Part shown: piece after piece, positions 4,698 to 17,921 of the stretch
Layout of the letters: the number at the start of each line of letters is the position of its first letter
How positions within the stretch are numbered: position 1 is the first letter of the stretch
Source of the DNA: Bacteroidales bacterium
Lineage (GTDB): Bacteria > Bacteroidota > Bacteroidia > Bacteroidales > UBA932
Assembly: GCA_017561665.1 (NCBI GenBank)
Contig: JAFZBQ010000047.1
Location: forward strand, 1 to 35,630
Reading direction: 5' to 3'
Length of the DNA: 35,630 nucleotides
Notes under the pieces: model-generated
What the model was told of the DNA's origin: nothing
Database searches by the model: none
What the model saw: only the letters and a program-made list of their open reading frames with translations
Translations under genes and position numbers: made by a program

Positions 4698-5174
4698 ATG
4701 GAGACAGAGAAGGGATTGTTTTCTTACTACGAGGGGCCGCTCGAAGAGTTCTTGAAAGCAGCGATAGTCACGAAAGAGGGGTTGATAAAAAGTATTATCG
4801 CCACAGTATCAAAAAGACTTATCAACGATTTGATTCTACACGGCATCGATACAGATGTCACATGGAAGCACACTATTGACAATAGCGCTGTAAGACACGC
4901 AATCAAGATTCATGGTAATGACAAAGAATCTTTGCGCGGTCAAAGTCAGTTGACGGTATCCGATATGTTAATGATTCCCACAATCGTAAGTTCATACGAC
5001 ACCATCACAACATCGAAGAACAGGCGCAATCAAGACACGATTCTGTACACCAAGACGATGGAATCTGGTGATACTTATTTCTTCGCAGAAGAGGTTCGAA
5101 TGGGCCGTCACGAGCTGGCAGCAAGCACTTTGTATAAAAGAAAAAAGGAAAACTCACCGACGCTAATAGGCTAA
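4698..5174 (+). CDS. Orphan PBECR-like (Barnase/EndoU/ColicinE5-RelE fold) nuclease domain protein
   Basis: The 158-aa product resembles the phage and polymorphic-toxin PBECR RNase modules. Supporting parts are VTWKHTIDNSAVRHAIKIHG at about 52-71, a QLTVSDMLMIPTIVSSYDTI stretch at about 83-102, and the end strand TYFFAEEVRMGRHELAASTL followed by a Lys-rich tail at about 125-150. In known members such modules sit at the C-terminus of phage MuF-type or secreted proteins; here the domain stands alone with no delivery domain or immunity gene. It lies between repeat copies A and D. Substrate and activity are not predictable; family assignment is by pattern only. Confidence 0.6.
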   Translation: METEKGLFSYYEGPLEEFLKAAIVTKEGLIKSIIATVSKRLINDLILHGIDTDVTWKHTIDNSAVRHAIKIHGNDKESLRGQSQLTVSDMLMIPTIVSSYDTITTSKNRRNQDTILYTKTMESGDTYFFAEEVRMGRHELAASTLYKRKKENSPTLIG

Positions 5175-6216: not shown

Positions 6217-6702
6217 ATGGATGAGAACGGTTACTACTATTACGATGATGAGTATGGAGAGCGTCTACTAATCAGTCGCGAAGCTGATAAGCGAGAGTTA
6301 CACGGGAATATCCGTGCAGCCAAGGCAATTCTTAATTCATTTTCCAATGTCACAATTGCTATCAATCCTCATTCAAAGAAGATTGGCACCAAGAATCCTG
6401 AGTACACGGTAGAAGGATTGCTTGGCGACAGGAAAGGCATTATGAGCGAAAAGGGAGTCACTGCAGGATTCAGATCTGCTAAACGGCAGGGATGCAAAGT
6501 AGTTGTGATTGATCTTGATGAAAATGTAGGGACTGTGCGTCCTTTTGAACTGTCAAAGTACATATCCAGAAGAAAAGCCGATTTTTCGGACGGAGCTATA
6601 TGTATGTGCTACATTGTGTTCAACGGTAATGCCGTAAGGATAACATCAGAGCAGCAAACCAGAGCTGATATTGAATCCCTCTTACAAAGAATGAAGCCGT
6701 AG
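6217..6702 (+). CDS. Orphan CdiA C-terminal-like nuclease domain protein
   Basis: The 161-aa product starts with a Tyr/Asp-rich stretch (YYYYDDEYGERLL) and continues with a domain similar in plan to CdiA-CT tRNase modules: LHGNIRAAKAIL helix, NPEYTVEGLLGDRK at about 67-80 (acidic metal-site candidates), AGFRSAKRQGCKVVVIDLDE at about 95-115, and the end strands ICMCYIVFNGNAVRITS. It shares this order of elements with the 1497 product but little sequence. There is no signal, delivery domain or immunity partner. It ends in a hairpin that is duplicated, with a 3' gene remnant, 1015 bp upstream. Family call is moderate. Confidence 0.6.
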   Translation: MDENGYYYYDDEYGERLLISREADKRELHGNIRAAKAILNSFSNVTIAINPHSKKIGTKNPEYTVEGLLGDRKGIMSEKGVTAGFRSAKRQGCKVVVIDLDENVGTVRPFELSKYISRRKADFSDGAICMCYIVFNGNAVRITSEQQTRADIESLLQRMKP

Positions 6703-7370: not shown

Positions 7371-10300
7371 ATGAAGACATTTTTCAAATCTTTAATGTTG
7401 ATCGCAGTAGCTGCTATCACATTTATTGCCTGCACTGAGCAGGAAACCCCCAAGCCAATCAATAATGAAGAACTCGTCACCCTCAAGTTCAATATTCGCA
7501 ATGTTGATGATGCTCCATTAACAAAGGCACTCCTTGGAACGGAAGATGGGAAGAACTTCCTCAACTGGGAGGACGGAGATAAAATTGGTACTTTTTCGAT
7601 TGGCTCGTTTACATCAGGAAGCTCCACTTACACTGAGTCGAAAAACAATGCCGGAAATGTCGAAGTTTCTGGTAATGACTACACGTTGAACGTACAATCT
7701 TTTTATGCGGGAACAGTTACAACTATCTATTCTTATTTCCCGTATTCATCCGGAGCCGGTAAGGACAAAACATCAGCCGTTGTTACCATTCCCGAAACCC
7801 AGCATATGACAGAACTTGGTTTTGATGCAGATGCTATGCCTATGGCAGGAACCCCTGTGACTGTCGATTTAACAACTGCAGCTAATACTGATACTCCTTG
7901 CGGTACTATCAATTTTAGCAATCTTGGTTCCATTATAAAGTTTAGGGTTTACACGAGTGAGTCAACATCTGAGACGCTTACTTCCGTTACTTACAAAGCG
8001 ACTGGTATAGGTGGTGCTTTTTCTATAGACCTTACTGGAATTGATGTCACTGATGAAACCACACTTATTATTACACCATCTGAAACGGTAAATGAACTCA
8101 CCACTTCAATTGTGGGAACCCCTGCCATAAGCGATTTGGACCATGCCATTGACGTATATATGGTTGTTGCTCCTGGTACGTATTCTGGCTCTCAAGTAGT
8201 TGTTACAACTAATGCTCATACCTACACTCTTGATGCTTCCGGTGCCAAGACATTTACCCGTTCACACGTAAAGCCAATTAAGGTTGATATTTCAAAGGGT
8301 ACTCCTGGCTCCCTTCCTACTCCTGAGACTTGGTCTAAGGTGACAAGTGCTTCCGACTTCACTCCTGGTACATACTATATCCTTCGCGCTGATGGTGAAT
8401 ATTATGTTCCAAATGCAAGTGGAAATCCGACTTGCGCTACATATTCAGCCGGTGATCCCATTACGAATGCAATGAAATGGACAGCTACGGCAAGTGGCTT
8501 GGGCCTACAATTCGAAAGCGTTGCCAATGCCGGGTATTATCTCTGGACAACTAACACAGGAAGTGCAAACACGATTTCAGTAGCTCAAACTTCAACTGGC
8601 GCGAATGCTTCAAAAATTTGGACTTTCGCGACAGTAAATGCTAATGAAACGATTTATTATACTGCGACAGCTGGCGCAGATAAGTATTTGGTTTCATACG
8701 GAACGTCCAATTGGCGTTATTATGGGACCAGCAATATTAACGGAAACAATATCCCCGCCGAGTTCTATAAGCTTGATGTGGTTGATAACAGAACTGCTGT
8801 TACTCTTTCATTTGCTGAATCTACTATTAACAAGACGACAGCTAACTACGATGGTTTCATCGGGCAGACGGCAAGTGCAGAACCAAATGAAACCGCTATT
8901 ACCGATAATATCACGTATGCTATAGCAGGTGATGCAATTGGTGATGTCGATCCCTCTACTGGCGATGTGACTCTTAACGGAACAGAAGGTGACGCTACTG
9001 TCACTGCATCATTTGCTGGAGACCAAACATTCAAGCCAGCTTCGGCATCTTACACCATTTCAGTTACTGAGCCTCTTAATAGGTACATAAAAGCTACTTC
9101 TATCGTAAGCGGAGAAAAATATTTGATTGTTGGCGTCAAGAGCGGTAGCACTTATCTGGCTACGCCTATTCCTAGTTCGAAGACATATGCATATCCCGCT
9201 GGTTATAATGTGACTTCCAAGGTTGTTGATGCGAATACAATCGAGATTAATGGTGAAAGTGAGTATTTATTTACTCTGACTACTTCAGGTACTGGCTATA
9301 CGATTAAACAGCCAGACAACAGGTACATCTACGCCAGTGGTTCATACGCTACACTTAATGTTGGCACTACACAAGGTGTTTGGACATTTGTAAAGCAAAG
9401 CAACGATTCATATAAGATCACTGAAACAGCTACAGGAGACAATACTTACATTCAGTTTGGTCAAGGCGATTATACCACCTTTGGCAGGTATTCTTCAGAT
9501 CAAACAAATGCGAGCCTTCCTTTCCTCTATGTCATGGATGATGGCAAGTCCGATGCCGGTATCAGTTATACACCCGCGAGCGCCACTGTTACCTTTGGTG
9601 AAACACTTACTCAGCCGACCCTGAGCAATGAACATGGTCTCACCGTCACATATGCTTCTGATGCAACGGGCGTAGCTACTGTCGAAAGCAATGGCGCTAT
9701 TTCTGTGGTTGGGGCTGGTACAGCTAAGATAACTGCTTCTTGGACAGAACAGGTAATCAATAGCGTTACTTATCGTGCTGGTTCCACTTCTTTCAACCTG
9801 ACGGTTTCAAAGGCCACTCCTACAATTGCAGCATTTAATAATCCTACGACATCTGTTGCTGTTGGAAGTAAAGTGACAAATACAACAACCATCTCCAATG
9901 GTTTAACAATCACCTATTCTTCCAACAACACTTCAGCTGCGACAGTTGATGCAGCAACAGGTGAAGTTACGGGTGTTGCAAACGGCACAGCTGTGATTTC
10001 CGCATCCTTTGCCGGTAATGAAAACTATAATGCAGCAGAATCTGCCACATATACCATTACCGTAGGAACTGGTGGAACCGGCTTTACTCCTGTTTCATTC
10101 TCTTGGACTCAGTCCGCTACCACATCAGGCTACTCATTCACCATGGAGAATGGTGCTTCAAAATCAGGATACATTCAGGATAAGAATAGCACGACCGGCC
10201 TTGATCTTCTCCTCAAAAAGTCAGATAGCTCAGCGTTATTCACAACTCAACCTACGAGTATCAGCATTACAGTCAAGGTTGGTGGAGGCTCTACCAAGGA

Positions 10301-10520
10301 TCCTTTGACTAATAATGTTCTTGCTTACCTGGTTGACAGTAATGGTGATAATATAGCTGCTACCGAAACCGTTGTAACTACGAAAGTAGAAGCCCAAACA
10401 GGAACGGAATATACTGTGACTATGCCGTTGGTTTCTACTGCTTACGGGCTTAGGATTCATCACGAAAAAGAATCTAGCTACAATATTAGAATCTACTCGA
10501 TTTCTTTCACTGCTAATTGA
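7371..10520 (+). CDS. Giant Ig-rich surface lipoprotein, ends at in-frame UGA before nuclease
   Basis: The 1049-aa product has a lipoprotein signal peptide with the lipobox FIAC (Cys21), then a fimbrillin-like domain (about 35-310, with LNWEDGDKIGTFS), two related domains starting WSKVTSASDFTPGTYYIL (about 320-470) and NRYIKATSIVSGEKYLIV (about 570-725), an Ig-like domain between them (about 475-565), two Big_2-like repeats (about 730-815 and 818-900) and a C-terminal beta-sandwich ending ISFTAN. The domain is complete exactly where the UGA lies. The same frame then continues without another stop to 11429 and encodes a nuclease, for 1352 aa in total. The Ig-like part is clearly related to the lipoprotein at 12621. 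The likely role is cell-surface display; what it binds is unknown. Confidence 0.9.
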   Translation: MKTFFKSLMLIAVAAITFIACTEQETPKPINNEELVTLKFNIRNVDDAPLTKALLGTEDGKNFLNWEDGDKIGTFSIGSFTSGSSTYTESKNNAGNVEVSGNDYTLNVQSFYAGTVTTIYSYFPYSSGAGKDKTSAVVTIPETQHMTELGFDADAMPMAGTPVTVDLTTAANTDTPCGTINFSNLGSIIKFRVYTSESTSETLTSVTYKATGIGGAFSIDLTGIDVTDETTLIITPSETVNELTTSIVGTPAISDLDHAIDVYMVVAPGTYSGSQVVVTTNAHTYTLDASGAKTFTRSHVKPIKVDISKGTPGSLPTPETWSKVTSASDFTPGTYYILRADGEYYVPNASGNPTCATYSAGDPITNAMKWTATASGLGLQFESVANAGYYLWTTNTGSANTISVAQTSTGANASKIWTFATVNANETIYYTATAGADKYLVSYGTSNWRYYGTSNINGNNIPAEFYKLDVVDNRTAVTLSFAESTINKTTANYDGFIGQTASAEPNETAITDNITYAIAGDAIGDVDPSTGDVTLNGTEGDATVTASFAGDQTFKPASASYTISVTEPLNRYIKATSIVSGEKYLIVGVKSGSTYLATPIPSSKTYAYPAGYNVTSKVVDANTIEINGESEYLFTLTTSGTGYTIKQPDNRYIYASGSYATLNVGTTQGVWTFVKQSNDSYKITETATGDNTYIQFGQGDYTTFGRYSSDQTNASLPFLYVMDDGKSDAGISYTPASATVTFGETLTQPTLSNEHGLTVTYASDATGVATVESNGAISVVGAGTAKITASWTEQVINSVTYRAGSTSFNLTVSKATPTIAAFNNPTTSVAVGSKVTNTTTISNGLTITYSSNNTSAATVDAATGEVTGVANGTAVISASFAGNENYNAAESATYTITVGTGGTGFTPVSFSWTQSATTSGYSFTMENGASKSGYIQDKNSTTGLDLLLKKSDSSALFTTQPTSISITVKVGGGSTKDPLTNNVLAYLVDSNGDNIAATETVVTTKVEAQTGTEYTVTMPLVSTAYGLRIHHEKESSYNIRIYSISFTAN

Positions 10521-10543
10521 AGCGGATCCGGAGGTAACTCCGG
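10518..10543 (+). other. Putative UGA readthrough site with downstream hairpin (locus 1)
   Basis: UGA (10518-10520), 7-nt spacer AGCGGAT, stem CCGGAG (10528-10533), GUAA loop of the GNRA type, stem CTCCGG (10538-10543). There is no U-run, so it is not an intrinsic terminator. The spacing and sequence recur at 16410, with one compensatory base-pair change in the stem. Readthrough would join the lipoprotein to the nuclease; this is inference. Confidence 0.6.
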
Positions 10544-11429
10544 GGATGGAAACATCACGGATGATTCCGGTTACGGAACGGGGTGGCTTGAGCTGCCCCG
10601 CTCCACCACCGGGACAAGTTTGATGACTGGAACGTACCGGGACGGCAACTCCCAGCGCAACTACACATACTTGTACGACCGGTCCATGTTCACGTCCATG
10701 TGGGTGGCCTATCCATTGTATAAATCCACCTTTACGGGTAGTTCAGCTTACAGCGGCTCTTGGGCACCTGCTACAGGAAACGGCTTTGGAACCAACAATT
10801 CCAACGGTTATCAGATTAACGTTTGGGATGCCAGCTACAATGTACTGCTTAATGAGACGACTTATGTGAATAACGCATCGAGTACCGGTCAGGAATTCTA
10901 CGCCTGCGGCCACCAGATACCGGATGCCGACCGTCAGTACAACCAAACTATGGTTCAGCAGACGTACTACGCCATCAACAGTACGCCGCAGATCCAGAAC
11001 AAGTTCAACGGAAGTATATGGTCTTCCTTAGAAAACGCAGTACGTACTGAAGCCGGAAAGGTCGATACCCTGTACGTCGCAACCGGCCCTGCCTTTGACA
11101 GAGCTGATATAAGCGGCACAGAGACGGTGACCTGGATAACCCCGAAGGGAGACCCCAATAGGTCCTGCCCGGTTCCGAACTACTACTGGAAGGTCCTCTT
11201 GAAGGTGACTAGGGACGGTGACGGAAAAGTTGAGAGCGCTTGCTCGATTGGATTCTGGTTCGTACACCAGCAATACGATAACAGCACCTACGCCGACTAC
11301 GCCGTCAGTGTTAACACTATTGAGGAGCGCACAGGCCTTGACCTCTTCGCCAACCTACCGGATACGATAGAGGAAACGGTCGAAAACAACAGCAACTGGC
11401 AAACGTTCCAGAACTATACGACGAATTAG
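10521..11429 (+). CDS. DNA/RNA non-specific endonuclease domain, in frame after the UGA of the 7371 gene
   Basis: The frame is open from the UGA to the TAG at 11427-11429. It encodes a Gly/Ser linker (SGSGGNSGDGN) and then a DNA/RNA non-specific endonuclease domain of the NucA/EndoG beta-beta-alpha-metal type. The active-site block reads ACGHQIPDADRQYNQ: the general-base His is kept, but the usual DRGH is ACGH. The metal-site region FNGSIWSSLE and the strand LYVATGPAF follow in the expected order. A gene finder would start it at TTG 10620 or ATG 10623, but neither has a ribosome site or signal peptide, and the 34 codons before them are open. A stand-alone product would be a cytoplasmic nuclease; a readthrough product would be surface-tethered. 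A strong terminator follows at 11464. Confidence 0.8.
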   Translation, partial: SGSGGNSGDGNITDDSGYGTGWLELPRSTTGTSLMTGTYRDGNSQRNYTYLYDRSMFTSMWVAYPLYKSTFTGSSAYSGSWAPATGNGFGTNNSNGYQINVWDASYNVLLNETTYVNNASSTGQEFYACGHQIPDADRQYNQTMVQQTYYAINSTPQIQNKFNGSIWSSLENAVRTEAGKVDTLYVATGPAFDRADISGTETVTWITPKGDPNRSCPVPNYYWKVLLKVTRDGDGKVESACSIGFWFVHQQYDNSTYADYAVSVNTIEERTGLDLFANLPDTIEETVENNSNWQTFQNYTTN

Positions 11430-11463
11430 ATCGTAAGCCTCCGACGAAGTACATCGGAAGAAG

Positions 11464-11512
11464 AGTAACGGTTACTAACCCTGAGTAATGGATTAGTGAC
11501 CGTTACTTTTTG
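11464..11512 (+). terminator. Terminator after the first nuclease cassette
   Basis: AGTAACGGTTACTAA pairs with TTAGTGACCGTTACT (14 of 15 positions) and is followed by TTTTT. Confidence 0.85.
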
Positions 11513-11597
11513 AAGTGATGGATTACTAACGGCAGATGTTGCCGGAGTGACAGCGAGGCCCTGGCCTCACCTCGGAGGCATCTGCCGTGCCGAGAAC

Positions 11598-11960
11598 TTA
11601 CGAGAGCACAATCGCGGGGTCAATGTGGAGGCGGGAGACGATGGTGCGAGCTTGCTCGAAGGTGGGATTTGCTTTACCGCTCAGGATTGCGTTGAGTCTG
11701 GCGGCCGTCATTCCAAGGATAGATGCCATCTGCTTTTGAGTCCACTTGTTTTCGACAAGTCTTGAAGTCATAGTGGAAGAGAGAGAAGGCGCCTCTATGG
11801 GAAAATGCTCTTGCTCATATTCCTCAACAATCGAAGACAGTATATCCAGTTCCACCAAACGGACATCGTTTGCCGGAGTATTTTCGTCTGTGGCAAAAAA
11901 CAACTCATCTATACGGGCCATCATTGCCTTGTACTGATTATCATTCTTTATTAGTGGCAT
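11598..11960 (-). CDS. higA: HigA-like antitoxin, helix-turn-helix
   Basis: The 120-aa product has an N-terminal acidic helical region and a C-terminal Cro/CI-type helix-turn-helix (WTQKQMASILGMTAARLNAILSGK, about 74-97). This is the layout of HigA antitoxins encoded after HigB. It follows higB by 9 nt in the same operon. It should bind and neutralise HigB and repress the operon promoter at 12271-12301. The pair sits between two paralogous lipoprotein-nuclease cassettes and is transcribed against them. Confidence 0.85.
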   Translation of the reverse strand: MPLIKNDNQYKAMMARIDELFFATDENTPANDVRLVELDILSSIVEEYEQEHFPIEAPSLSSTMTSRLVENKWTQKQMASILGMTAARLNAILSGKANPTFEQARTIVSRLHIDPAIVLS

Positions 11961-11969
11961 GACTATCTA

Positions 11970-12263
11970 CTATATTGTTGAAACGTTTATTCTATCATAC
12001 TCGTCATGAGTTCCCACGAATCGGATATATACTAAGCATGGCGTAAACTTTACCGCCACTACAAGCCTATAGTCATTGCCCTTGATATTGAACACGTAGT
12101 GCTGGTTGCCGACGTAGTCCACGGAGTTAAAGTCCGCCCGCATATCATTTAATGACTGCCATCTGGCACGGCTCGTTTTTACATACCACTCTTTCAGTGG
12201 TTGCTCGGCTATGGGATGCTTCTCCCAAAACTCCCTCAACGCAGATATCGCAATTATCCTCAT
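11970..12263 (-). CDS. higB: HigB-like toxin, RelE-superfamily mRNA interferase
   Basis: The 97-aa product begins MRIIAISALREFWEKHP and carries the HigB pattern KEWY, W.SLNDMRADF, VFNIKGNDYRLVV and VYIRFVGTHDEYDRI, including the C-terminal HDEYD typical of the family. HigB toxins cut mRNA on the ribosome. The gene comes first in the operon, as usual for higBA, with the ATG 8 nt after a perfect promoter -7 box, so its leader is very short. The full family length is present, so the module looks functional. Confidence 0.9.
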   Translation of the reverse strand: MRIIAISALREFWEKHPIAEQPLKEWYVKTSRARWQSLNDMRADFNSVDYVGNQHYVFNIKGNDYRLVVAVKFTPCLVYIRFVGTHDEYDRINVSTI

Positions 12264-12270
12264 AACAGCG

Positions 12271-12301
12271 CAAAGTTATCAATTATCAAATTAATAACAA
12301 A
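12271..12301 (-). promoter_or_regulatory. higBA promoter with overlapping palindrome
   Basis: TTTG, 19 nt, TAACTTTG on the minus strand. The spacer contains GTTAT...ATAAC and repeated AATTGATAA-type sequence, a plausible HigA operator. Confidence 0.75.
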
Positions 12302-12407
12302 ATTATTTTTCTGATAACAGAATATCCGGCCGACATAGTAGCGGCAGTTATTGATATTTTGTTGAAAATAACCCCTGTTAGCTATTCTTTTTTTGAAAAG
12401 TAATCAG

Positions 12408-12415
12408 TAATTTTG
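12408..12415 (+). promoter_or_regulatory. -7 box upstream of the 12461 small ORF
   Basis: TAATTTTG lies 46 nt before the small ORF, the same box as at 7154-7161; the -33 region lacks TTTG. Confidence 0.45.
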
Positions 12416-12460
12416 AAGGTTATTCGCAAACAGCAAAAATATCATATAAAATCAATCAAA

Positions 12461-12607
12461 ATGAAGAAAGAAATTTATTCCCGGCCTATGGCTGAGTTCC
12501 TCGATTTGGAGATCGAGGATAATCTACTGCAGACGACGTCACCTTACATTCCCGGTGGCGGCGGATCTTATGGTGATGATGACACTAACAACAATGGTGA
12601 TTTTTAA
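12461..12607 (+). CDS. Small acidic-tailed peptide upstream of lipoprotein-nuclease (48 aa)
   Basis: The ORF begins MKKEIYSRPMAEFLDLEIED, has LLQTTS at about 23-28, then a Gly-rich stretch (PGGGGSYG) and the acidic tail DDDTNNNGDF. It is the third member of the family seen at 1121 and 7218. Its stop lies within TAATGGAGG, so the ribosome site of the next gene directly follows it, 13 nt before that ATG. Translation coupling with the lipoprotein is likely. Confidence 0.75.
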   Translation: MKKEIYSRPMAEFLDLEIEDNLLQTTSPYIPGGGGSYGDDDTNNNGDF

Positions 12608-12620
12608 TGGAGGATGCGTT

Positions 12621-15600
12621 ATGAAAAAGATTTTTCAATTTCTGTTGGTGGCTGTAGCAGCCATAGCTCTCTTCTCCTGCACCGGTAAGGAAAAAGTTAA
12701 ATCTCTTGAGAAGAACAGTGTCACTATCAATGTCATCGCAAAGGCAGACAATCTCGCTTCCGATGACATCGAAACCAAGACTTATATCACTACGTACAAC
12801 AACGTAGCCAACACTATCCTTTGGGGATCGAATGAGTACATGAAGTTGGCAGTTACGCCTGAAGGCGGTGCTACCGAGTTTGCGACATCAAAAGATGCTA
12901 CTGCAAATATATTCAACGGTCAGCCGATGGCCACATTTGGTTTTGAAATCGCCCCCGCTGATGCCGATGCCTACACATATCAAGGCTTTTATCCTGCATC
13001 CGCAGCCGTTGCAAGCAACAATACCAAAATTGAAAGTTATAAAATCAACCTCATTGAAACCCAGAATGCGACAGCCAATTCTTATGACCCGGCTGCCTAC
13101 ATTATGGTTGCAAAACCCGAGACTTTCAATGAGGTCAAGACCGACTGGCTCGCTTCTTATCGTCGTGCAACAGCCCTGAACAAGGTAACTCTTAAGAACC
13201 TCCCCGCTGCGGTACAGGAAGCCGGCATCAAGAGGGTTGAAATCACTGCCGATGTAAAAGACCCCCAAGAGAACACCTACCTTACAGGTGCACGTCGCTT
13301 TGATCTTACTACCGGCGAAAGCGGTGAAATTTACAGTGGCAGCGCTACAGTTGCTGTTAAGTATGAAAACCACATCACCGGCAATGCCAATGCTGACGTT
13401 TGGTTCACTTCCTGGGGCGTTGAACTTTCAGAAGGCGATGCCCTCACTGTAGCCGTATATGCAGGTGATAAAATCTATTTACGAATTATCACCCTTGGCA
13501 GCGGCAAGTCCATTTCCTTCAAAGAGGGATACCTGAATACCCTTGGCGTCAATATGGGCGGAAATGATGTAATTATTGCCGACAATACCGAGCTTGAAGA
13601 TGGTGACTATGTGGTGCTGGCCAACAACAACGGCACTTACTATGCCCTGAAAGCCGAGGCCGAAAACACACGTATGGGATACGAATCATATACCGGCAGC
13701 ACCACTGAATATGCCGGCTCAGATAATTCCATTATTTGGACAGTAAGCAAGTCCGGTGACTCATACATCTTCGCCAACGACGGCAACTACCTCGGCTGGA
13801 ATTCCGGTAATACCGCAGCTATGAATGAACCCGGTGAATCCTGGACACCAACCAACTACTTACTGGATGCTACTTTCGATAACATCAACAGCTGCTATAA
13901 AGTAAGCGTTCATAGTGAATCAAGCCGCATCCTGGCAAAGAATACCGGTTCTTCTTATGGTTTCGCTTTCTACGCCGGTTCGGGTTACAACCAGATTATC
14001 TTCGTCCCCGCTACAGTCGACAACCGTGCAGAAGTTTCTCTCTCATTTGCAGAGTTTGCTATTGAGCTTACTACCGAAAACTTTGGCAATTTCTTTGGTC
14101 AGGAGGTAGTCGCCGATCCCGATGTCACAGCAATTACCAATAATCTTACCTGGTCTTATGAGGGTGACGAAGGCGTAATTGAGGATTTGGATGAGGGCTC
14201 GGTAGAGCTTTCAGGCAATCCGGGTACTGTGACTGTAACGGTTACCTTCCCCGGTGATAACAACTACATGCCGGCAACTGCAAGCTACACGATTACCGTC
14301 AGCTCACCTGTTACTGGTCCCGGATGGGTAGAAACAGCTATAACTGCTCTTACATCCAATGATGTGTTTGTAATTGTTGGTGACAATGGTGATACTTACG
14401 CACTTTCTAACGACAATGGTGCGTCTAATGCTCCGACTGCAGTAGCTGTAACAGTGTCTGGAAACAAGCTTATCGGAACTATTGACAATAACATACAATG
14501 GAAAATTTCTGTAGCTGATAATGGTTACTTATTCAGTCCCAATGGCGCCCCAAATAGTTATTTGTACGTTACGGCAACGAATAATGGATTAAGGGTTGGA
14601 TCTAGTGACTATAATAGTTTTGTGATAGTTAATGGCTACCTGAAGGGTAAAGACAGCAAGGATGACGACAGGTATATTGGTATATATAACAGCTCTGATT
14701 GGAGATGCTATACATCTATTAACAATAATATTGCCGGACAGACCTTCAAGTTCTACAAACTCTCAGATTCCCGCGACGAGGCTCCTATGAGCTGGAGTGA
14801 AGAAACAGGTACTGCAACAATGACTGCAAATGGCTTGAGTTACAATTTACCTGATTTGGTTTTCAACTCACCTGCGGCACTGCCTGTCACTTATGCTTCC
14901 AGCGATCCCAATGTGGCAACTGTAGATGCTTCTACAGGCGTTGTTACAGCCGTAAGCGAAGGCACCACAACCATCAGCGCCACTTACGATGGCAGCGATG
15001 ACAATGCTCCTTACCAGACCACTGTTAAGAGCTACACGCTTACCGTTACGGATAGCCGTACAGCTTGTGCAACTCCTACCTTCAGCCCTGCCGCCGGCGA
15101 GGTTACTTCCGGAACAACCGTAACAATTGCCTCTGCCACTTCCGGCGCTACCATCTGGTATACCACCGGCAATACCGAATTCTCTGAGGGTGGCTGGACA
15201 GAATACACCGAACCTGTAGCCGTAACTGAGGCATGCACCATCAAGGCCATCGCAGTGAAAGCGAACTACAAGAATAGCGAGGTGGCTTCTGCTGCCTATG
15301 TTATTACTGTTGCTACTGTTGGTTCGGGCACTGAGCAAGACCCTTACACTGCCGGTGATATTCTTGACAAGTATCCTAACGGTTCGGGCGATGCGTTGGT
15401 ATATGTAACTGGACGAATTACTAGTATTACTGAAGTCAGCTTAAACTATAAGAACGCAACATATACCATCAGTGACGGTAATAGAAGTATTCTGGTTTAC
15501 AGAGGAAAGTATCTTGATGGTGCAGACTTTACAAGTACCGACCAGATTGCCGTAAATGACATCGTTATTGTTTATGGTCAGATTGGAACATATAATAATG

Positions 15601-16412
15601 CTCCTCAGCTGGCTAATGGCAACTATCTTACCTCGTTAACACACATTGCTGTTAATCCCGAAACGTTGACCTGGGCGGCAGGTGAGAATGACCAAAAGCA
15701 AGTCACCGTAACAACCAGCGACAATGCAGGCTTCACCCACAGCATCGTATCCGGAACTTATAGCGACTGGACAATCACTGCTACTGGTGGTACCAAATTA
15801 AGTGTTAAGCCCAAGGCAGCCAATACCAGTACAACCACAGACAAGGTCATCGTGCTGAAGGTAATGCATAACACTGACCCTACCGTATACCAGTTGATTA
15901 CTTGCACACAGTCCAAGGTGAGCAATGGAACACCTTTCACGTACACACTTGATGGTACTATCACTGCGTCTGGTAATGCTTATGCATCAGCATCTACAGT
16001 TACCCAGAATGAAATTGGATGGCAAGTAACGGCTAATACAGAACAGAGTCCCTGGAGGGTCGGTGGCAAGGGTCTTACTGACCAGGATCGTGCTATCTAT
16101 AGCACAACTGCTATTTCTGCCGACATCAACCAGATAAAAGTTGGCTCCGGTTCTGTTGCAGGTGGCCTTACTGTAAATTCTTTGACTATTACCGTACACA
16201 ATTCGGCTGCTGATGCTGCAAGTGGTAGTAATGCAATTGCCACAAAGACCTTTACGTCTGGTATAGCCGGTGCCACTGTTACTTTTGATAAAGAAGACAA
16301 TACCAGCTGGGCAGGCAAGTATTATAGAATTGTCTACAATGTAACCCGCACATCAACTAGTCAAAACGGTTACATTACATTCTATAGTGCTCAGTTCAAC
16401 GGTACCGAGTGA
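12621..16412 (+). CDS. Giant surface lipoprotein, ends at in-frame UGA before Fn3-nuclease
   Basis: The ATG at 12621 has GGAGG 8 nt upstream and begins a signal peptide with the lipobox LFSC (Cys20); the longer frame from 12555 overlaps the small ORF and is rejected. Of 1263 aa, the N-terminal 300 are fimbrillin-like; then follow a DGDYVVLANNNGTYYAL domain, an Ig-like domain starting DNRAEVSLSFAEFAIEL that is clearly related to the 7371 protein, a second display-type domain, a Big_2-like repeat (about 745-810), a chitobiase-C-like repeat (TPTFSPAAGEVTSGTTVTI, about 815-895), an OB-fold-like region (about 905-1010), a BACON-like domain (about 1015-1095) and a terminal beta-sandwich ending AQFNGTE. 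The UGA follows at once, and the frame continues to 17921 for 1766 aa in total. Confidence 0.9.
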   Translation: MKKIFQFLLVAVAAIALFSCTGKEKVKSLEKNSVTINVIAKADNLASDDIETKTYITTYNNVANTILWGSNEYMKLAVTPEGGATEFATSKDATANIFNGQPMATFGFEIAPADADAYTYQGFYPASAAVASNNTKIESYKINLIETQNATANSYDPAAYIMVAKPETFNEVKTDWLASYRRATALNKVTLKNLPAAVQEAGIKRVEITADVKDPQENTYLTGARRFDLTTGESGEIYSGSATVAVKYENHITGNANADVWFTSWGVELSEGDALTVAVYAGDKIYLRIITLGSGKSISFKEGYLNTLGVNMGGNDVIIADNTELEDGDYVVLANNNGTYYALKAEAENTRMGYESYTGSTTEYAGSDNSIIWTVSKSGDSYIFANDGNYLGWNSGNTAAMNEPGESWTPTNYLLDATFDNINSCYKVSVHSESSRILAKNTGSSYGFAFYAGSGYNQIIFVPATVDNRAEVSLSFAEFAIELTTENFGNFFGQEVVADPDVTAITNNLTWSYEGDEGVIEDLDEGSVELSGNPGTVTVTVTFPGDNNYMPATASYTITVSSPVTGPGWVETAITALTSNDVFVIVGDNGDTYALSNDNGASNAPTAVAVTVSGNKLIGTIDNNIQWKISVADNGYLFSPNGAPNSYLYVTATNNGLRVGSSDYNSFVIVNGYLKGKDSKDDDRYIGIYNSSDWRCYTSINNNIAGQTFKFYKLSDSRDEAPMSWSEETGTATMTANGLSYNLPDLVFNSPAALPVTYASSDPNVATVDASTGVVTAVSEGTTTISATYDGSDDNAPYQTTVKSYTLTVTDSRTACATPTFSPAAGEVTSGTTVTIASATSGATIWYTTGNTEFSEGGWTEYTEPVAVTEACTIKAIAVKANYKNSEVASAAYVITVATVGSGTEQDPYTAGDILDKYPNGSGDALVYVTGRITSITEVSLNYKNATYTISDGNRSILVYRGKYLDGADFTSTDQIAVNDIVIVYGQIGTYNNAPQLANGNYLTSLTHIAVNPETLTWAAGENDQKQVTVTTSDNAGFTHSIVSGTYSDWTITATGGTKLSVKPKAANTSTTTDKVIVLKVMHNTDPTVYQLITCTQSKVSNGTPFTYTLDGTITASGNAYASASTVTQNEIGWQVTANTEQSPWRVGGKGLTDQDRAIYSTTAISADINQIKVGSGSVAGGLTVNSLTITVHNSAADAASGSNAIATKTFTSGIAGATVTFDKEDNTSWAGKYYRIVYNVTRTSTSQNGYITFYSAQFNGTE

Positions 16413-16438
16413 GGCGGAACCGGGGAGGGAGACCCCGG
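16410..16438 (+). other. Putative UGA readthrough site with downstream hairpin (locus 2)
   Basis: UGA (16410-16412), 7-nt spacer GGCGGAA, stem CCGGGG (16420-16425), loop AGGGAGA, stem CCCCGG (16433-16438). There is no U-run. From the UGA on, 13 of 16 bases match locus 1, and the changed stem position keeps its pairing (G-C here, A-U there). Confidence 0.6.
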
Positions 16439-17921
16439 GGCGACAGCCACGGTAACGACCGGTAATGCTACGGACGGCAGCTCGACAGGGGCATCCCTGT
16501 CGGGCTCCTGGACCGGAGCGACTGGTGCTGTTTCCGAGACAGGTTTCATTTACGGGACCTACTCTGACATCAGTACCCTCAAGGCATACGGAACCAAGGT
16601 TTTCAACACTGTAAACCTTAGCTCCGCAGACGGTAGTTTTGACAAAGCCGTATCGGGTCTGTCGGCCAATACTACTTATTATTTCCTTGCTTATATCAAG
16701 GAGTATAATGCCAAAACGTCCAGCGTAGAGACACGCTATGCCGCATCGGCCCAGAGCTTCAGGACAAAGGCCATCGCCACAGCAACTGTAAGCACTAACG
16801 CAGCGAGCAGCATCGCCCAGACTACGGCTGTTCTAAACGGTGAGTATACCGGCGCTACCGGCAGTGTGGATTATACCGGCTTCGTCTGGGGTACATCTGA
16901 TAGCAGTTTGACGCACGATGCAATGGGTAGCAGTACGTCATCTCCGTTTACGGCAACCATTACCGGACTGACGGAGAATACGACCTACTACTGCAAGGCT
17001 TATGTGGGCGAGTGGAACGAGAACACCAACAAATACGAGTATCGGTATGGCCCGGTGAAGTCGTTCACGACCCTGTCGACATCCACCGGCAACAATCTTG
17101 GTTATCTGGCAAACTACGAGGTGCCGGATGTGTCGTCTCTTTTGAACGGCCAAAGGACATCCGGAACATACTCCCCGAAAGAAGACAAATGGTATCGGTA
17201 TTACACCACCAACAGCAGCCGGCAGATTGCGATGCATACCTACAATCAGACCCGCACCTATGTAGTGCTATATGATGAGACCAAGTATGCTCCGCTCTGG
17301 AGCGCACATGCGATGAATGACGGTATGTGGCCCAATAACAGCGTCGGTCGTAACCAATCGTGGTGTGATGATCCGGCCATAAGCCTCACCCAGCAGTCAG
17401 GACTCGACAATGCAAACTCCGTCGGATATAGCAGGGGACATTTTGTGGCTTCCAGCGACAGGCAGACCCATCTTTATCAGAACAAGCAGACCTTCTACTA
17501 CAGCAACCAGGCCCCGCAGTGGCAGAATGGGTTCAACGGTAATATATGGTCAAAACTTGAGGACCAGATTCAGGATCTTGTACCCGCTGCCGGCTCCCGG
17601 GACACTCTGTATGTTGTGACAGGTGTGCTTTATGAGAATAATAAGACGTTGCCCAGCGGCAGCCTGGATGTCCCCATCCCCAGCCATTTCTACAAGTGCC
17701 TGATGTTGTGTTCTTTTAATGCGTCAGGAACTATGACAGGGGCCCAGGGTTGCGCGTATATATTTACAAACGAGTACCATACGGAGAATTCCTACGACAA
17801 GCTCAAGAACTTTGCGGCAAAGATAGACGACATTGAGACTCTTGCCGGCTTCGACTTCTTCCCGAGAGTGCCGGCAAATCTGCAAACGACCGCGGAGAAT
17901 TCCAAAGCGGAATTGTGGTAG
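16413..17921 (+). CDS. Two Fn3-like repeats plus DNA/RNA non-specific endonuclease, in frame after the UGA of the 12621 gene
   Basis: The frame is open from the UGA to the TAG at 17919-17921. It encodes a Gly-rich linker (GGTGEGDPGA), two successive Fn3-like repeats (about 10-115 and 116-220; compare SANTTYYFLAYIKE with TENTTYYCKAYVGE) and a nuclease domain. The active-site block is YSRGHFVASSDRQ (SRGH for DRGH, His and Arg kept), followed by FNGNIWSKLEDQ as the metal-site helix and LYVVTGVLY. The first usable start (GTG 16866) falls inside the second Fn3 repeat, so an independent gene starting there would be cut mid-domain; coding clearly begins at the UGA. There is no signal peptide. As in locus 1, tethering to the lipoprotein by readthrough is the simplest way to export it. 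Confidence 0.8.
   Translation, partial: GGTGEGDPGATATVTTGNATDGSSTGASLSGSWTGATGAVSETGFIYGTYSDISTLKAYGTKVFNTVNLSSADGSFDKAVSGLSANTTYYFLAYIKEYNAKTSSVETRYAASAQSFRTKAIATATVSTNAASSIAQTTAVLNGEYTGATGSVDYTGFVWGTSDSSLTHDAMGSSTSSPFTATITGLTENTTYYCKAYVGEWNENTNKYEYRYGPVKSFTTLSTSTGNNLGYLANYEVPDVSSLLNGQRTSGTYSPKEDKWYRYYTTNSSRQIAMHTYNQTRTYVVLYDETKYAPLWSAHAMNDGMWPNNSVGRNQSWCDDPAISLTQQSGLDNANSVGYSRGHFVASSDRQTHLYQNKQTFYYSNQAPQWQNGFNGNIWSKLEDQIQDLVPAAGSRDTLYVVTGVLYENNKTLPSGSLDVPIPSHFYKCLMLCSFNASGTMTGAQGCAYIFTNEYHTENSYDKLKNFAAKIDDIETLAGFDFFPRVPANLQTTAENSKAELW

What the first reader, a model, noticed from the sequence alone, without database searches (positions are those of the whole stretch)
10518..16438. Twin in-frame UGA codons joining surface lipoproteins to nucleases, with matching sequence and hairpin
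Two paralogous cassettes each place a complete lipoprotein and a complete DNA/RNA non-specific endonuclease in one frame interrupted only by UGA. The 16 bases from each UGA (TGA-R-GCGGA-W-CCGG-R-G) match at 13 positions although the surrounding proteins have diverged. The shared code is standard, since UGA ends several other genes here. No independent start or signal peptide serves the nuclease parts. I infer programmed readthrough giving a minor tethered-nuclease form.
Basis: partly seen in the sequence, partly recalled or inferred. Interest (0 to 1): 0.92.

Follow-up and report, generated by a model that had tools for sequence, protein, structure and literature searches.

The report
UGA readthrough element joining lipoprotein to nuclease
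A group of gut bacteria, many of them from the rumen, appears to use a folded stretch of messenger RNA just after a stop codon to let some ribosomes run on and add a nuclease to the end of a surface protein, a kind of control known mainly from viruses and animals.

Summary
Both cassettes are a lipoprotein ORF, an in-frame UGA and an open Endonuclease_NS extension, with hairpins 7 nt after the UGA. Across one Bacteroidales family I analysed 67 such junctions (66 distinct); 58 have extensions over 250 aa. All 38 distinct junctions reached through protein similarity use UGA. The element has two RNA folds, both with covariation. Loop-length differences are 3 nt; the extension is under purifying selection (median dN/dS 0.21). 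A model without the UGA hits only bases right after junction UGAs (12 of 12, 269 genomes), and nothing below E 0.34 in 56 nuclease loci of other architectures. Sense fusions of related heads to related nucleases lack both UGA and hairpin. tRNA-Sec exceeds cutoff in 0 of 24 element genomes. Best reading: programmed UGA readthrough stimulated by a 3' RNA structure, giving a minor nuclease-tipped lipoprotein. There are no expression data; readthrough itself is inferred. Seven extensions are broken, so the nuclease is dispensable in some lineages.

The parts
7371..10517 (+). Cassette 1 head: lipoprotein (signal + lipobox MKTFFKSLMLIAVAAITFIAC), bacterial Ig-like (Big_2) domains
   Evidence: Pfam Big_2 1.6e-10; lipobox by eye and by pattern
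10518..10520 (+). In-frame UGA of cassette 1
10521..10527 (+). 7-nt spacer (AGCGGAT)
   Evidence: 7 nt in 30 of 30 aligned type I junctions
10528..10543 (+). Hairpin 1: CCGGAG-GTAA-CTCCGG
10545..10556 (+). Hairpin 2: GATG-GAAA-CATC
10521..11426 (+). Readthrough extension 1: Gly/Ser linker + Endonuclease_NS (302 aa); its RGH-type motif reads CGH (His kept)
   Evidence: Pfam 5.9e-32; motif
12621..16409 (+). Cassette 2 head: lipoprotein (MKKIFQFLLVAVAAIALFSC), Big_2, CHB_HEX_C_1, Fn3_assoc
16410..16412 (+). In-frame UGA of cassette 2
16413..16419 (+). 7-nt spacer (GGCGGAA)
16420..16438 (+). Hairpin 1: CCGGGG-AGGGAGA-CCCCGG
16439..16448 (+). Short hairpin 2: GGC-GACA-GCC (3 bp, shifted relative to the consensus)
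16413..17918 (+). Readthrough extension 2: linker, Fn3-like repeats (my reading, no Pfam match), Endonuclease_NS (502 aa)
   Evidence: Pfam 1.4e-40 for residues 281-488

Best explanation
The UGA is a programmed readthrough site. Most ribosomes stop there and release a complete surface lipoprotein (head). A folded mRNA element that begins 7 nt downstream (type I: two successive hairpins; type II: one long two-stem hairpin starting 8-10 nt downstream) sits at the mRNA entry of the ribosome when the UGA is in the A site. It slows or disfavours release, so that a near-cognate tRNA sometimes decodes UGA. The ribosome then goes on in the same frame through the element (a Gly/Ser-rich linker in type I) into a DNA/RNA non-specific nuclease. 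The product is a minor lipoprotein with a nuclease at its tip, anchored on the cell surface. Shown by sequence: the architecture, UGA in every protein-found junction, frame, covarying structure, selection on the extension, head/tail exchange at the junction. Inferred: readthrough itself, near-cognate decoding, surface display, a low ratio.
For: Stop identity: an unfiltered table of 86 protein-found rows (L110 and L154 handled apart) has 39 with a long in-frame head and no own signal whose stop is TGA, and 2 with TAA (L114, L205), which are not lipoprotein heads: L205 has its own start right after the stop and L114 shows a signal pattern inside its ORF. With C89 and L110 and without 3 duplicates that is 38 of 38 distinct junctions with UGA. 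Rows with a signal of their own are preceded by TAA 18, TAG 7, TGA 12, and the extensions end in TAA 23, TAG 21, TGA 14 of 58. Type I covariation: 91.2% of cells paired, 43 two-sided changes, score 0.335 against 0.108 shuffled and at most 0.094 slid (30 sequences, selected without regard to structure). Type II: 93.6% paired, 6 pairs with two-sided changes, 0.385 against 0.175 shuffled (6 sequences). 53 of 53 type I elements are more stable than the mean of synonymous recodings, mean z -1.74. The element is itself read in frame: 12 of 30 rows differ by exactly 3 nt in the loop. Extension dN/dS median 0.21, maximum 0.33 over 21 pairs with dS < 1.5. Model without TGA: 12 hits in 269 genomes, all starting right after a junction TGA, 8 of them among its training sequences; 56 nuclease loci of other architectures give nothing below E 0.34. 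Related heads fused in sense to related nucleases lack UGA and hairpin. Heads start with a lipobox-like N-terminus in 63 of 67, three of the other four being cut by contig ends.
Against: No ribosome profiling, proteomics or reporter data. Seven of 67 junctions have an intact head and element but an extension that closes within 9-54 codons; three further junctions left out of the 67 are also imperfect: L110 has a TAG inside the nuclease, L162 an extra in-frame TAA 85 codons before the UGA, and L174 its head in another frame. So the extension is dispensable in some lineages, or some of these are errors. W2, C89 and L187 are individually not unusual under synonymous recoding, and type II only in 1 of 13. 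The free exchange of heads and tails at the junction would also fit a recombination role. In E. coli reporters predicted structure did not correlate with readthrough (PMC11126739, passages read).
Confidence: 0.8

Rival explanations
1. The element is mainly a DNA junction for module exchange: a conserved palindromic stretch at which heads and nuclease tails recombine, with the UGA just the head's own stop.
For: Same tail on unrelated heads (L273/L277, 83% tail identity, no head similarity found) and same head end with distant tails (L115/L274, 78% vs 29%); the UGA state needs 10 changes on the nuclease tree, at least 5 forced by well-supported branches.
Against: Does not explain why the stop is UGA in 38 of 38, why frame is kept, why the structure starts at a fixed 7 nt, why two unrelated folds do the same job, nor why stems covary while their sequence changes. 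Sense fusions of related heads and tails exist without the element. It could be an additional effect, not the sole role.
Confidence: 0.08
2. Termination-reinitiation: the nuclease is a separate cytoplasmic protein started by ribosomes that have just terminated at the UGA.
For: Translational coupling is common in bacteria (recalled); the 5' arm of hairpin 1 often holds GGAGG.
Against: Frame 0 would not be needed; only 6 of 58 extensions have a Met in the first 40 residues and none a signal-like stretch; GGAGG is lost in other stems (GGCGG, GTCGG, GCCGG); indels in the element are multiples of 3.
Confidence: 0.05
3. The UGA encodes selenocysteine and the hairpin is a bacterial SECIS.
For: A bacterial SECIS also lies just downstream of the UGA (recalled).
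Against: tRNA-Sec above cutoff in 0 of 24 element genomes (5 of 14 control genomes are above it); the sub-threshold hits examined by ARAGORN are ordinary tRNAs, mostly Ser and Leu. The UGA lies between a head and a linker, not in an active site. SelA/SelB were not searched.
Confidence: 0.02
4. UGA is a sense codon throughout this clade, or a dedicated suppressor tRNA reads it.
For: An in-frame UGA inside a long open frame is what a changed code looks like.
Against: UGA ends many other ORFs, including 14 of 58 of these very extensions. The tRNAs that ARAGORN names at the 35 tRNA hits of the window's genome include no UCA anticodon, two hits (C125, C51) being unresolved; but the genome is incomplete (89.9%) and tRNA-Trp is among those not seen.
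Confidence: 0.02
5. The extensions are decaying pseudogene remnants and the RNA structure is a by-product of Gly/Ser codons.
For: Seven of 67 extensions are broken, and L110 has a TAG in the nuclease.
Against: dN/dS 0.21, nuclease motif kept (RGH-type in 56 of 58), covariation in hairpin 2, where the amino acids vary (GVGNY, GGGNS, GGQTP, GEGDL), and 53 of 53 type I elements more stable than their synonymous mean.
Confidence: 0.03

Closest known systems
Viral stop codon readthrough with a 3' RNA structure (murine leukaemia virus gag-pol and others)
   Same: In-frame stop, and a minor C-terminally extended product that adds an enzyme to a structural protein (Gag-Pol readthrough: passages of PMC5009743; start of the abstract of PMC4178896). 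That a structure a few nt downstream stimulates it is recalled.
   Different: Here it is in bacterial chromosomal genes, with UGA (MLV uses UAG), simple hairpins and no known pseudoknot, spread over many species and many head proteins.
Phage Q-beta coat protein / A1 readthrough
   Same: Leaky UGA in a bacterium makes a minor, extended surface protein; the abstract gives Trp insertion at about 1 in 15 (PMC8067240, abstract and passages).
   Different: The passages read mention no stimulating structure; one viral gene, not a cellular gene family.
Bacterial SECIS / selenocysteine insertion
   Same: UGA followed by a coding hairpin that changes its meaning (recalled).
   Different: No tRNA-Sec over cutoff in 24 genomes; the junction UGA lies between domains.
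Sense-fused or stand-alone Endonuclease_NS lipoproteins of the same bacteria
   Same: Same nuclease family, sometimes the same head domains.
   Different: One uninterrupted ORF, usually with its own lipobox, without UGA and without the element.

Membership tests
Programmed stop codon readthrough | In-frame stop followed by a long open frame under protein-coding selection | tested here: met
   58 of 67 extensions over 250 aa; dN/dS median 0.21 over 21 pairs
Programmed stop codon readthrough | Conserved cis-acting stimulator next to the stop | tested here: met
   Covarying structures 7-10 nt downstream; that they stimulate is inferred
Programmed stop codon readthrough | Leaky stop identity conserved | tested here: met
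   UGA in 38 of 38 distinct protein-found junctions
Programmed stop codon readthrough | Extended product made above background | not testable with these tools
   Needs reporter, ribosome profiling or mass spectrometry
Selenoprotein | tRNA-Sec in the genome | tested here: not met
   0 of 24 element genomes over cutoff
Selenoprotein | SelA and SelB in the genome | not tested
   No search made
Known Rfam RNA family | Match above gathering score | tested here: not met
   Window 10400-16700 only: one weak histone stem-loop hit elsewhere, below its gathering score
Endonuclease_NS (PF01223) | Match above Pfam gathering score | tested here: met
   111.6 and 139.7 bits, cutoff 23
Endonuclease_NS (PF01223) | RGH-type motif | tested here: met
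   56 of 58 by pattern; cassette 1 reads CGH with His kept, L197 also falls outside the pattern. That this motif is catalytic is recalled
Intrinsic transcription terminator | GC-rich stem followed by a T run | tested here: not met
   Neither junction is among the 15 terminator-like sites
Surface lipoprotein | Signal peptide and lipobox | tested here: met
   Lipobox-like N-terminus in 63 of 67 heads by pattern, 3 of the others cut by contig ends; surface exposure itself not tested

The most novel reading that the evidence does not exclude
A dedicated bacterial recoding system: two unrelated families of mRNA elements evolved, or were recruited, to set a fixed or regulated fraction of surface lipoproteins tipped with a nuclease, possibly helped by a trans-acting factor or by a growth-state change in release factor 2. 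It would be the first widespread class of structure-driven, non-selenocysteine stop codon readthrough in bacterial chromosomal genes, used as an interchangeable head/tail connector.
Probability: 0.45. Interest if true: 0.95.

Novelty: new variant of a known kind. Interest (0 to 1): 0.88.

Why it matters
Structure-stimulated readthrough is well known for RNA viruses and reported for animal genes; in bacteria functional UGA readthrough is known to me mainly for selenocysteine and Q-beta (partly recalled). A cellular bacterial class with more than 60 natural variants, two folds and sense-fused controls would give a ready-made system to measure how mRNA structure blocks release by RF2. Standard gene calling would split these proteins, so a family of surface-tethered nucleases would be missed or misnamed. 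A set ratio of nuclease-bearing to bare lipoprotein would be a new way to tune a possibly costly surface enzyme.

Tried and rejected
Exact-sequence motif (TGARGCGGAWCCGG) as the conserved signal: rejected, because the 7 nt after UGA vary while pairing is kept. Three pattern hits in other genus genomes (L086, L088, L089) are not junctions. Element tied to other downstream domains: none seen; of the 25 R1 hits fetched afresh 24 start at the UGA of a long ORF, and the 22 model-found extensions over 250 aa all match a nuclease profile built from the 36 protein-found ones (E 3e-54 or better). Element outside the family: 0; of 393 order genomes only the window's own has R1 hits at E <= 0.001, with filters that lose weak matches. 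Selenocysteine: no tRNA-Sec over cutoff. Transcription terminator: not met. Reinitiation: see rivals. My first structure string for type II was mis-registered (poor scores) and was redone from RNAalifold. An alignment starting at the stem misplaced its gap and was remade with the spacer. My first pass over minus-strand loci had the wrong orientation and was redone. The script kept TGA stops only, so its 'all TGA' proves nothing; one search recounts without that filter. R1 and R2 contain the UGA columns, so UGA at their hits is not independent evidence. Rows dropped before the counts on 67: L176 and L203 (not junctions), L297, L318, L319 (weak model hits that are not junctions), L162, L174 and L110 (imperfect junctions).
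Full report
What is there. The window is contig C75 of a 2.2 Mb, 127-contig, 89.9% complete genome. Cassette 1 runs from a 1049-aa lipoprotein ORF (7371-10520) through UGA 10518-10520 into 302 open codons; cassette 2 from a 1263-aa lipoprotein (12621-16412) through UGA 16410-16412 into 502 open codons. Both extensions match Endonuclease_NS (5.9e-32 and 1.4e-40), and the heads carry Ig-like and related domains. Hairpins start 7 nt after each UGA. A third copy lies on contig C89 of the same genome (L004/L038) and a fourth in a genome of the same genus, G015:C114. The genome has five Endonuclease_NS matches; the other two have no such UGA: C92 is one long ORF and C123 has its own lipobox.

How far it reaches. 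I aligned three Fn3-like-plus-nuclease extensions (A1) and searched named genomes: 26 loci, all from MAGs labelled Bacteroidales or Bacteroidia except one Prevotella and one Candidatus Cryptobacteroides; 10 of the 26 titles name a rumen or another forestomach. Of the 26, 14 are lipoprotein-UGA-nuclease with an open extension, and a fifteenth, L110, has the UGA and hairpin but a TAG inside the nuclease (I had missed it at first). The same alignment matched 284 of 398 genomes of the window's family at E <= 1e-20. From a list that the tool cut short I fetched 60 regions, mostly the strongest, some chosen for open-frame length; 24 of the 60 show the junction, among them the imperfect L162 and L174, the others being nucleases in an ORF of their own or cut by a contig end. 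A covariance model of type I (R1, built from 30 junctions) gave 48 hits in 39 of 398 family genomes. I fetched the 25 hits not seen before: 24 begin exactly at a UGA ending an ORF of 591-1498 aa, one (L297) does not. A type II model (R2, 6 junctions) gave 12 hits in 11 of 398 genomes; the 10 strong ones are junctions and the 2 weak ones are not. Together that is 45 of 398 genomes with a junction at these thresholds. In 393 genomes drawn from the order only the window's own has R1 hits at E <= 0.001. The statistics below rest on 67 junctions, 66 distinct.

Stop identity. R1 and R2 include the UGA, and the script kept only TGA, so the fair count is the unfiltered one over 86 protein-found rows: a long in-frame head and no signal of the extension's own occurs 39 times with TGA, twice with TAA (L114, L205), never with TAG. 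L205 has its own start right after the stop, and L114 shows a signal pattern inside its ORF, so neither is such a junction. Adding C89 and L110 and removing 3 duplicates gives 38 of 38 distinct junctions with UGA. Rows with a signal of their own are preceded by TAA 18, TAG 7, TGA 12.

The RNA element. Type I: UGA, 7 nt, hairpin 1 (CCGGAGG-CGGAA-CCTCCGG and variants such as CCGGCG..CGCCGG, CCGTCG..CGACGG, CCGCC..GGCGG, CCGAGGG..CCCTCGG), one base, then hairpin 2 of 4 bp with a 4-nt loop (GATG..CATC, GTAG..CTAC, GGAG..CTCC, GGCA..TGCC, GAGG..CCTC, GGTG..CACC). On the 30 protein-found sequences 91.2% of cells pair; 43 cells change on both sides; covariation is 0.335 against 0.108 (sd 0.018) shuffled and 0.034-0.094 when slid. 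Hairpin 2 is weaker than hairpin 1 (82.5% against 96.5% paired). Related sequences inflate such scores, so the slid controls and the number of pair types matter more than the shuffles. Type II: a stem of 7 pairs, a 2x2 internal loop and a second stem of 6 pairs; 93.6% paired, 6 of 13 pairs with two-sided changes. Against synonymous recodings with local codon use 53 of 53 type I elements are more stable than the mean (20 of 53 at 5 of 200 or fewer), type II 11 of 13 (1 of 13 at 5 of 200 or fewer). W2, C89 and L187 are individually unremarkable in that test. Rfam has no match at the two window junctions.

Link of element and stop. Model R3, built without the UGA columns, gave 12 hits in 10 of 269 family genomes, every one starting on the base after the UGA of a known junction; 8 of the 12 are among its own training sequences and 4 are not. 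In 56 held nuclease loci of other architectures its best hit had E 0.34. Five sense-fused ORFs (L181, L154, L103 and the near-twins L169, L172) carry heads related to UGA-type heads up to the head's end (for example L181 and L204, 71% over 150 aa) and run into the nuclease without UGA and without the hairpin linker. So UGA and structure come and go together.

The extension is protein. Over 21 pairs with dS < 1.5 the median dN/dS is 0.21 and the maximum 0.33. The element itself is read in frame: in the type I alignment 12 of 30 rows lack exactly 3 nt in the loop. The extensions end in TAA 23, TAG 21, TGA 14 of 58. They show no signal-like stretch and only 6 of 58 have a Met within 40 residues, whereas 63 of 67 heads start with a lipobox-like signal. 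Of 47 ORFs in the comparison set 41 show a lipobox-like signal by my pattern; 4 of the 6 that fail look like signals that the pattern misses, and L206 is cut by a contig end (my reading). All 22 model-found extensions over 250 aa match a profile of the 36 protein-found nucleases.

Evolution. Heads and tails recombine at the junction: L273 and L277 share 83% of the tail and no detectable head similarity; L115 and L274 share 78% of the head end and 29% of the tail; type I and type II elements occur behind related heads (L293, L194). On a nuclease tree of 58 UGA rows and 47 others the state needs 10 changes, at least 5 forced by well-supported branches (the long branches L286 and L192 are insecure, and L206 cannot really be classed). 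Seven junctions keep head and element but have an extension that closes within 9-54 codons, so the head seems useful alone.

Mechanism. Near-cognate decoding of UGA, favoured by a structure at the ribosome's mRNA entry, fits all of this. Selenocysteine is unlikely: tRNA-Sec above cutoff in 0 of 24 element genomes; near misses examined are ordinary tRNAs, mostly Ser and Leu. In the window's genome the tRNAs named at the 35 tRNA hits include no UCA anticodon, with two hits unresolved and tRNA-Trp among the missing. What I cannot show is that the long product exists, how much of it, and with which residue at the UGA.

Literature. Ten searches of the open PubMed Central library listed no paper that I could recognise as describing such readthrough in Bacteroidales or a structure-driven, non-selenocysteine class in bacterial chromosomal genes; subscription papers and preprints are not held, and I saw mostly listings, so this is weak evidence of absence. 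I read passages of PMC5009743, PMC11126739 and PMC8067240, and otherwise only listings and starts of abstracts. Firth et al. 2011 on 3' structures in readthrough was seen only as a reference and is not held.

Noticed in passing
window 11598-12263 (-): A HigB-type toxin (Pfam 4.9e-32) with an HTH antitoxin-like gene sits between the two cassettes.
   Followed up: partly
window 12461-12607 (+): A short ORF (MKKEIYSRPMAEFLDLEIEDNLLQTTSPYIPGGGGSYGDDDTNNNGDF) ends just before the cassette 2 lipoprotein; a short ORF also precedes the lipoprotein in L109.
   Followed up: no
window 4698-5174 and 6217-6702 (+): Small ORFs with a PBECR3 nuclease match (5.5e-17) and a weak CdiA_C match (0.004, below cutoff) lie upstream of the cassettes.
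   Followed up: no
L312 (G421:C15), junctions at record positions 13056 and 16635: Tandem copies of a lipoprotein with identical last 250 residues; only the first has an open nuclease extension.
   Followed up: partly
L174 (G308:C37): The head is in a different frame from the UGA, next to an A run; an indel or an assembly error.
   Followed up: partly
L110, positions 1230 and 2013: A UGA junction with hairpin in a short contig labelled Prevotella sp., with a TAG inside the nuclease and the head cut by the contig end.
   Followed up: partly
window 16413-17130 (+): The repeats before the cassette 2 nuclease weakly resemble part of an NCBIfam arabinosidase model (3.3e-12, far below its cutoff).
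   Followed up: no
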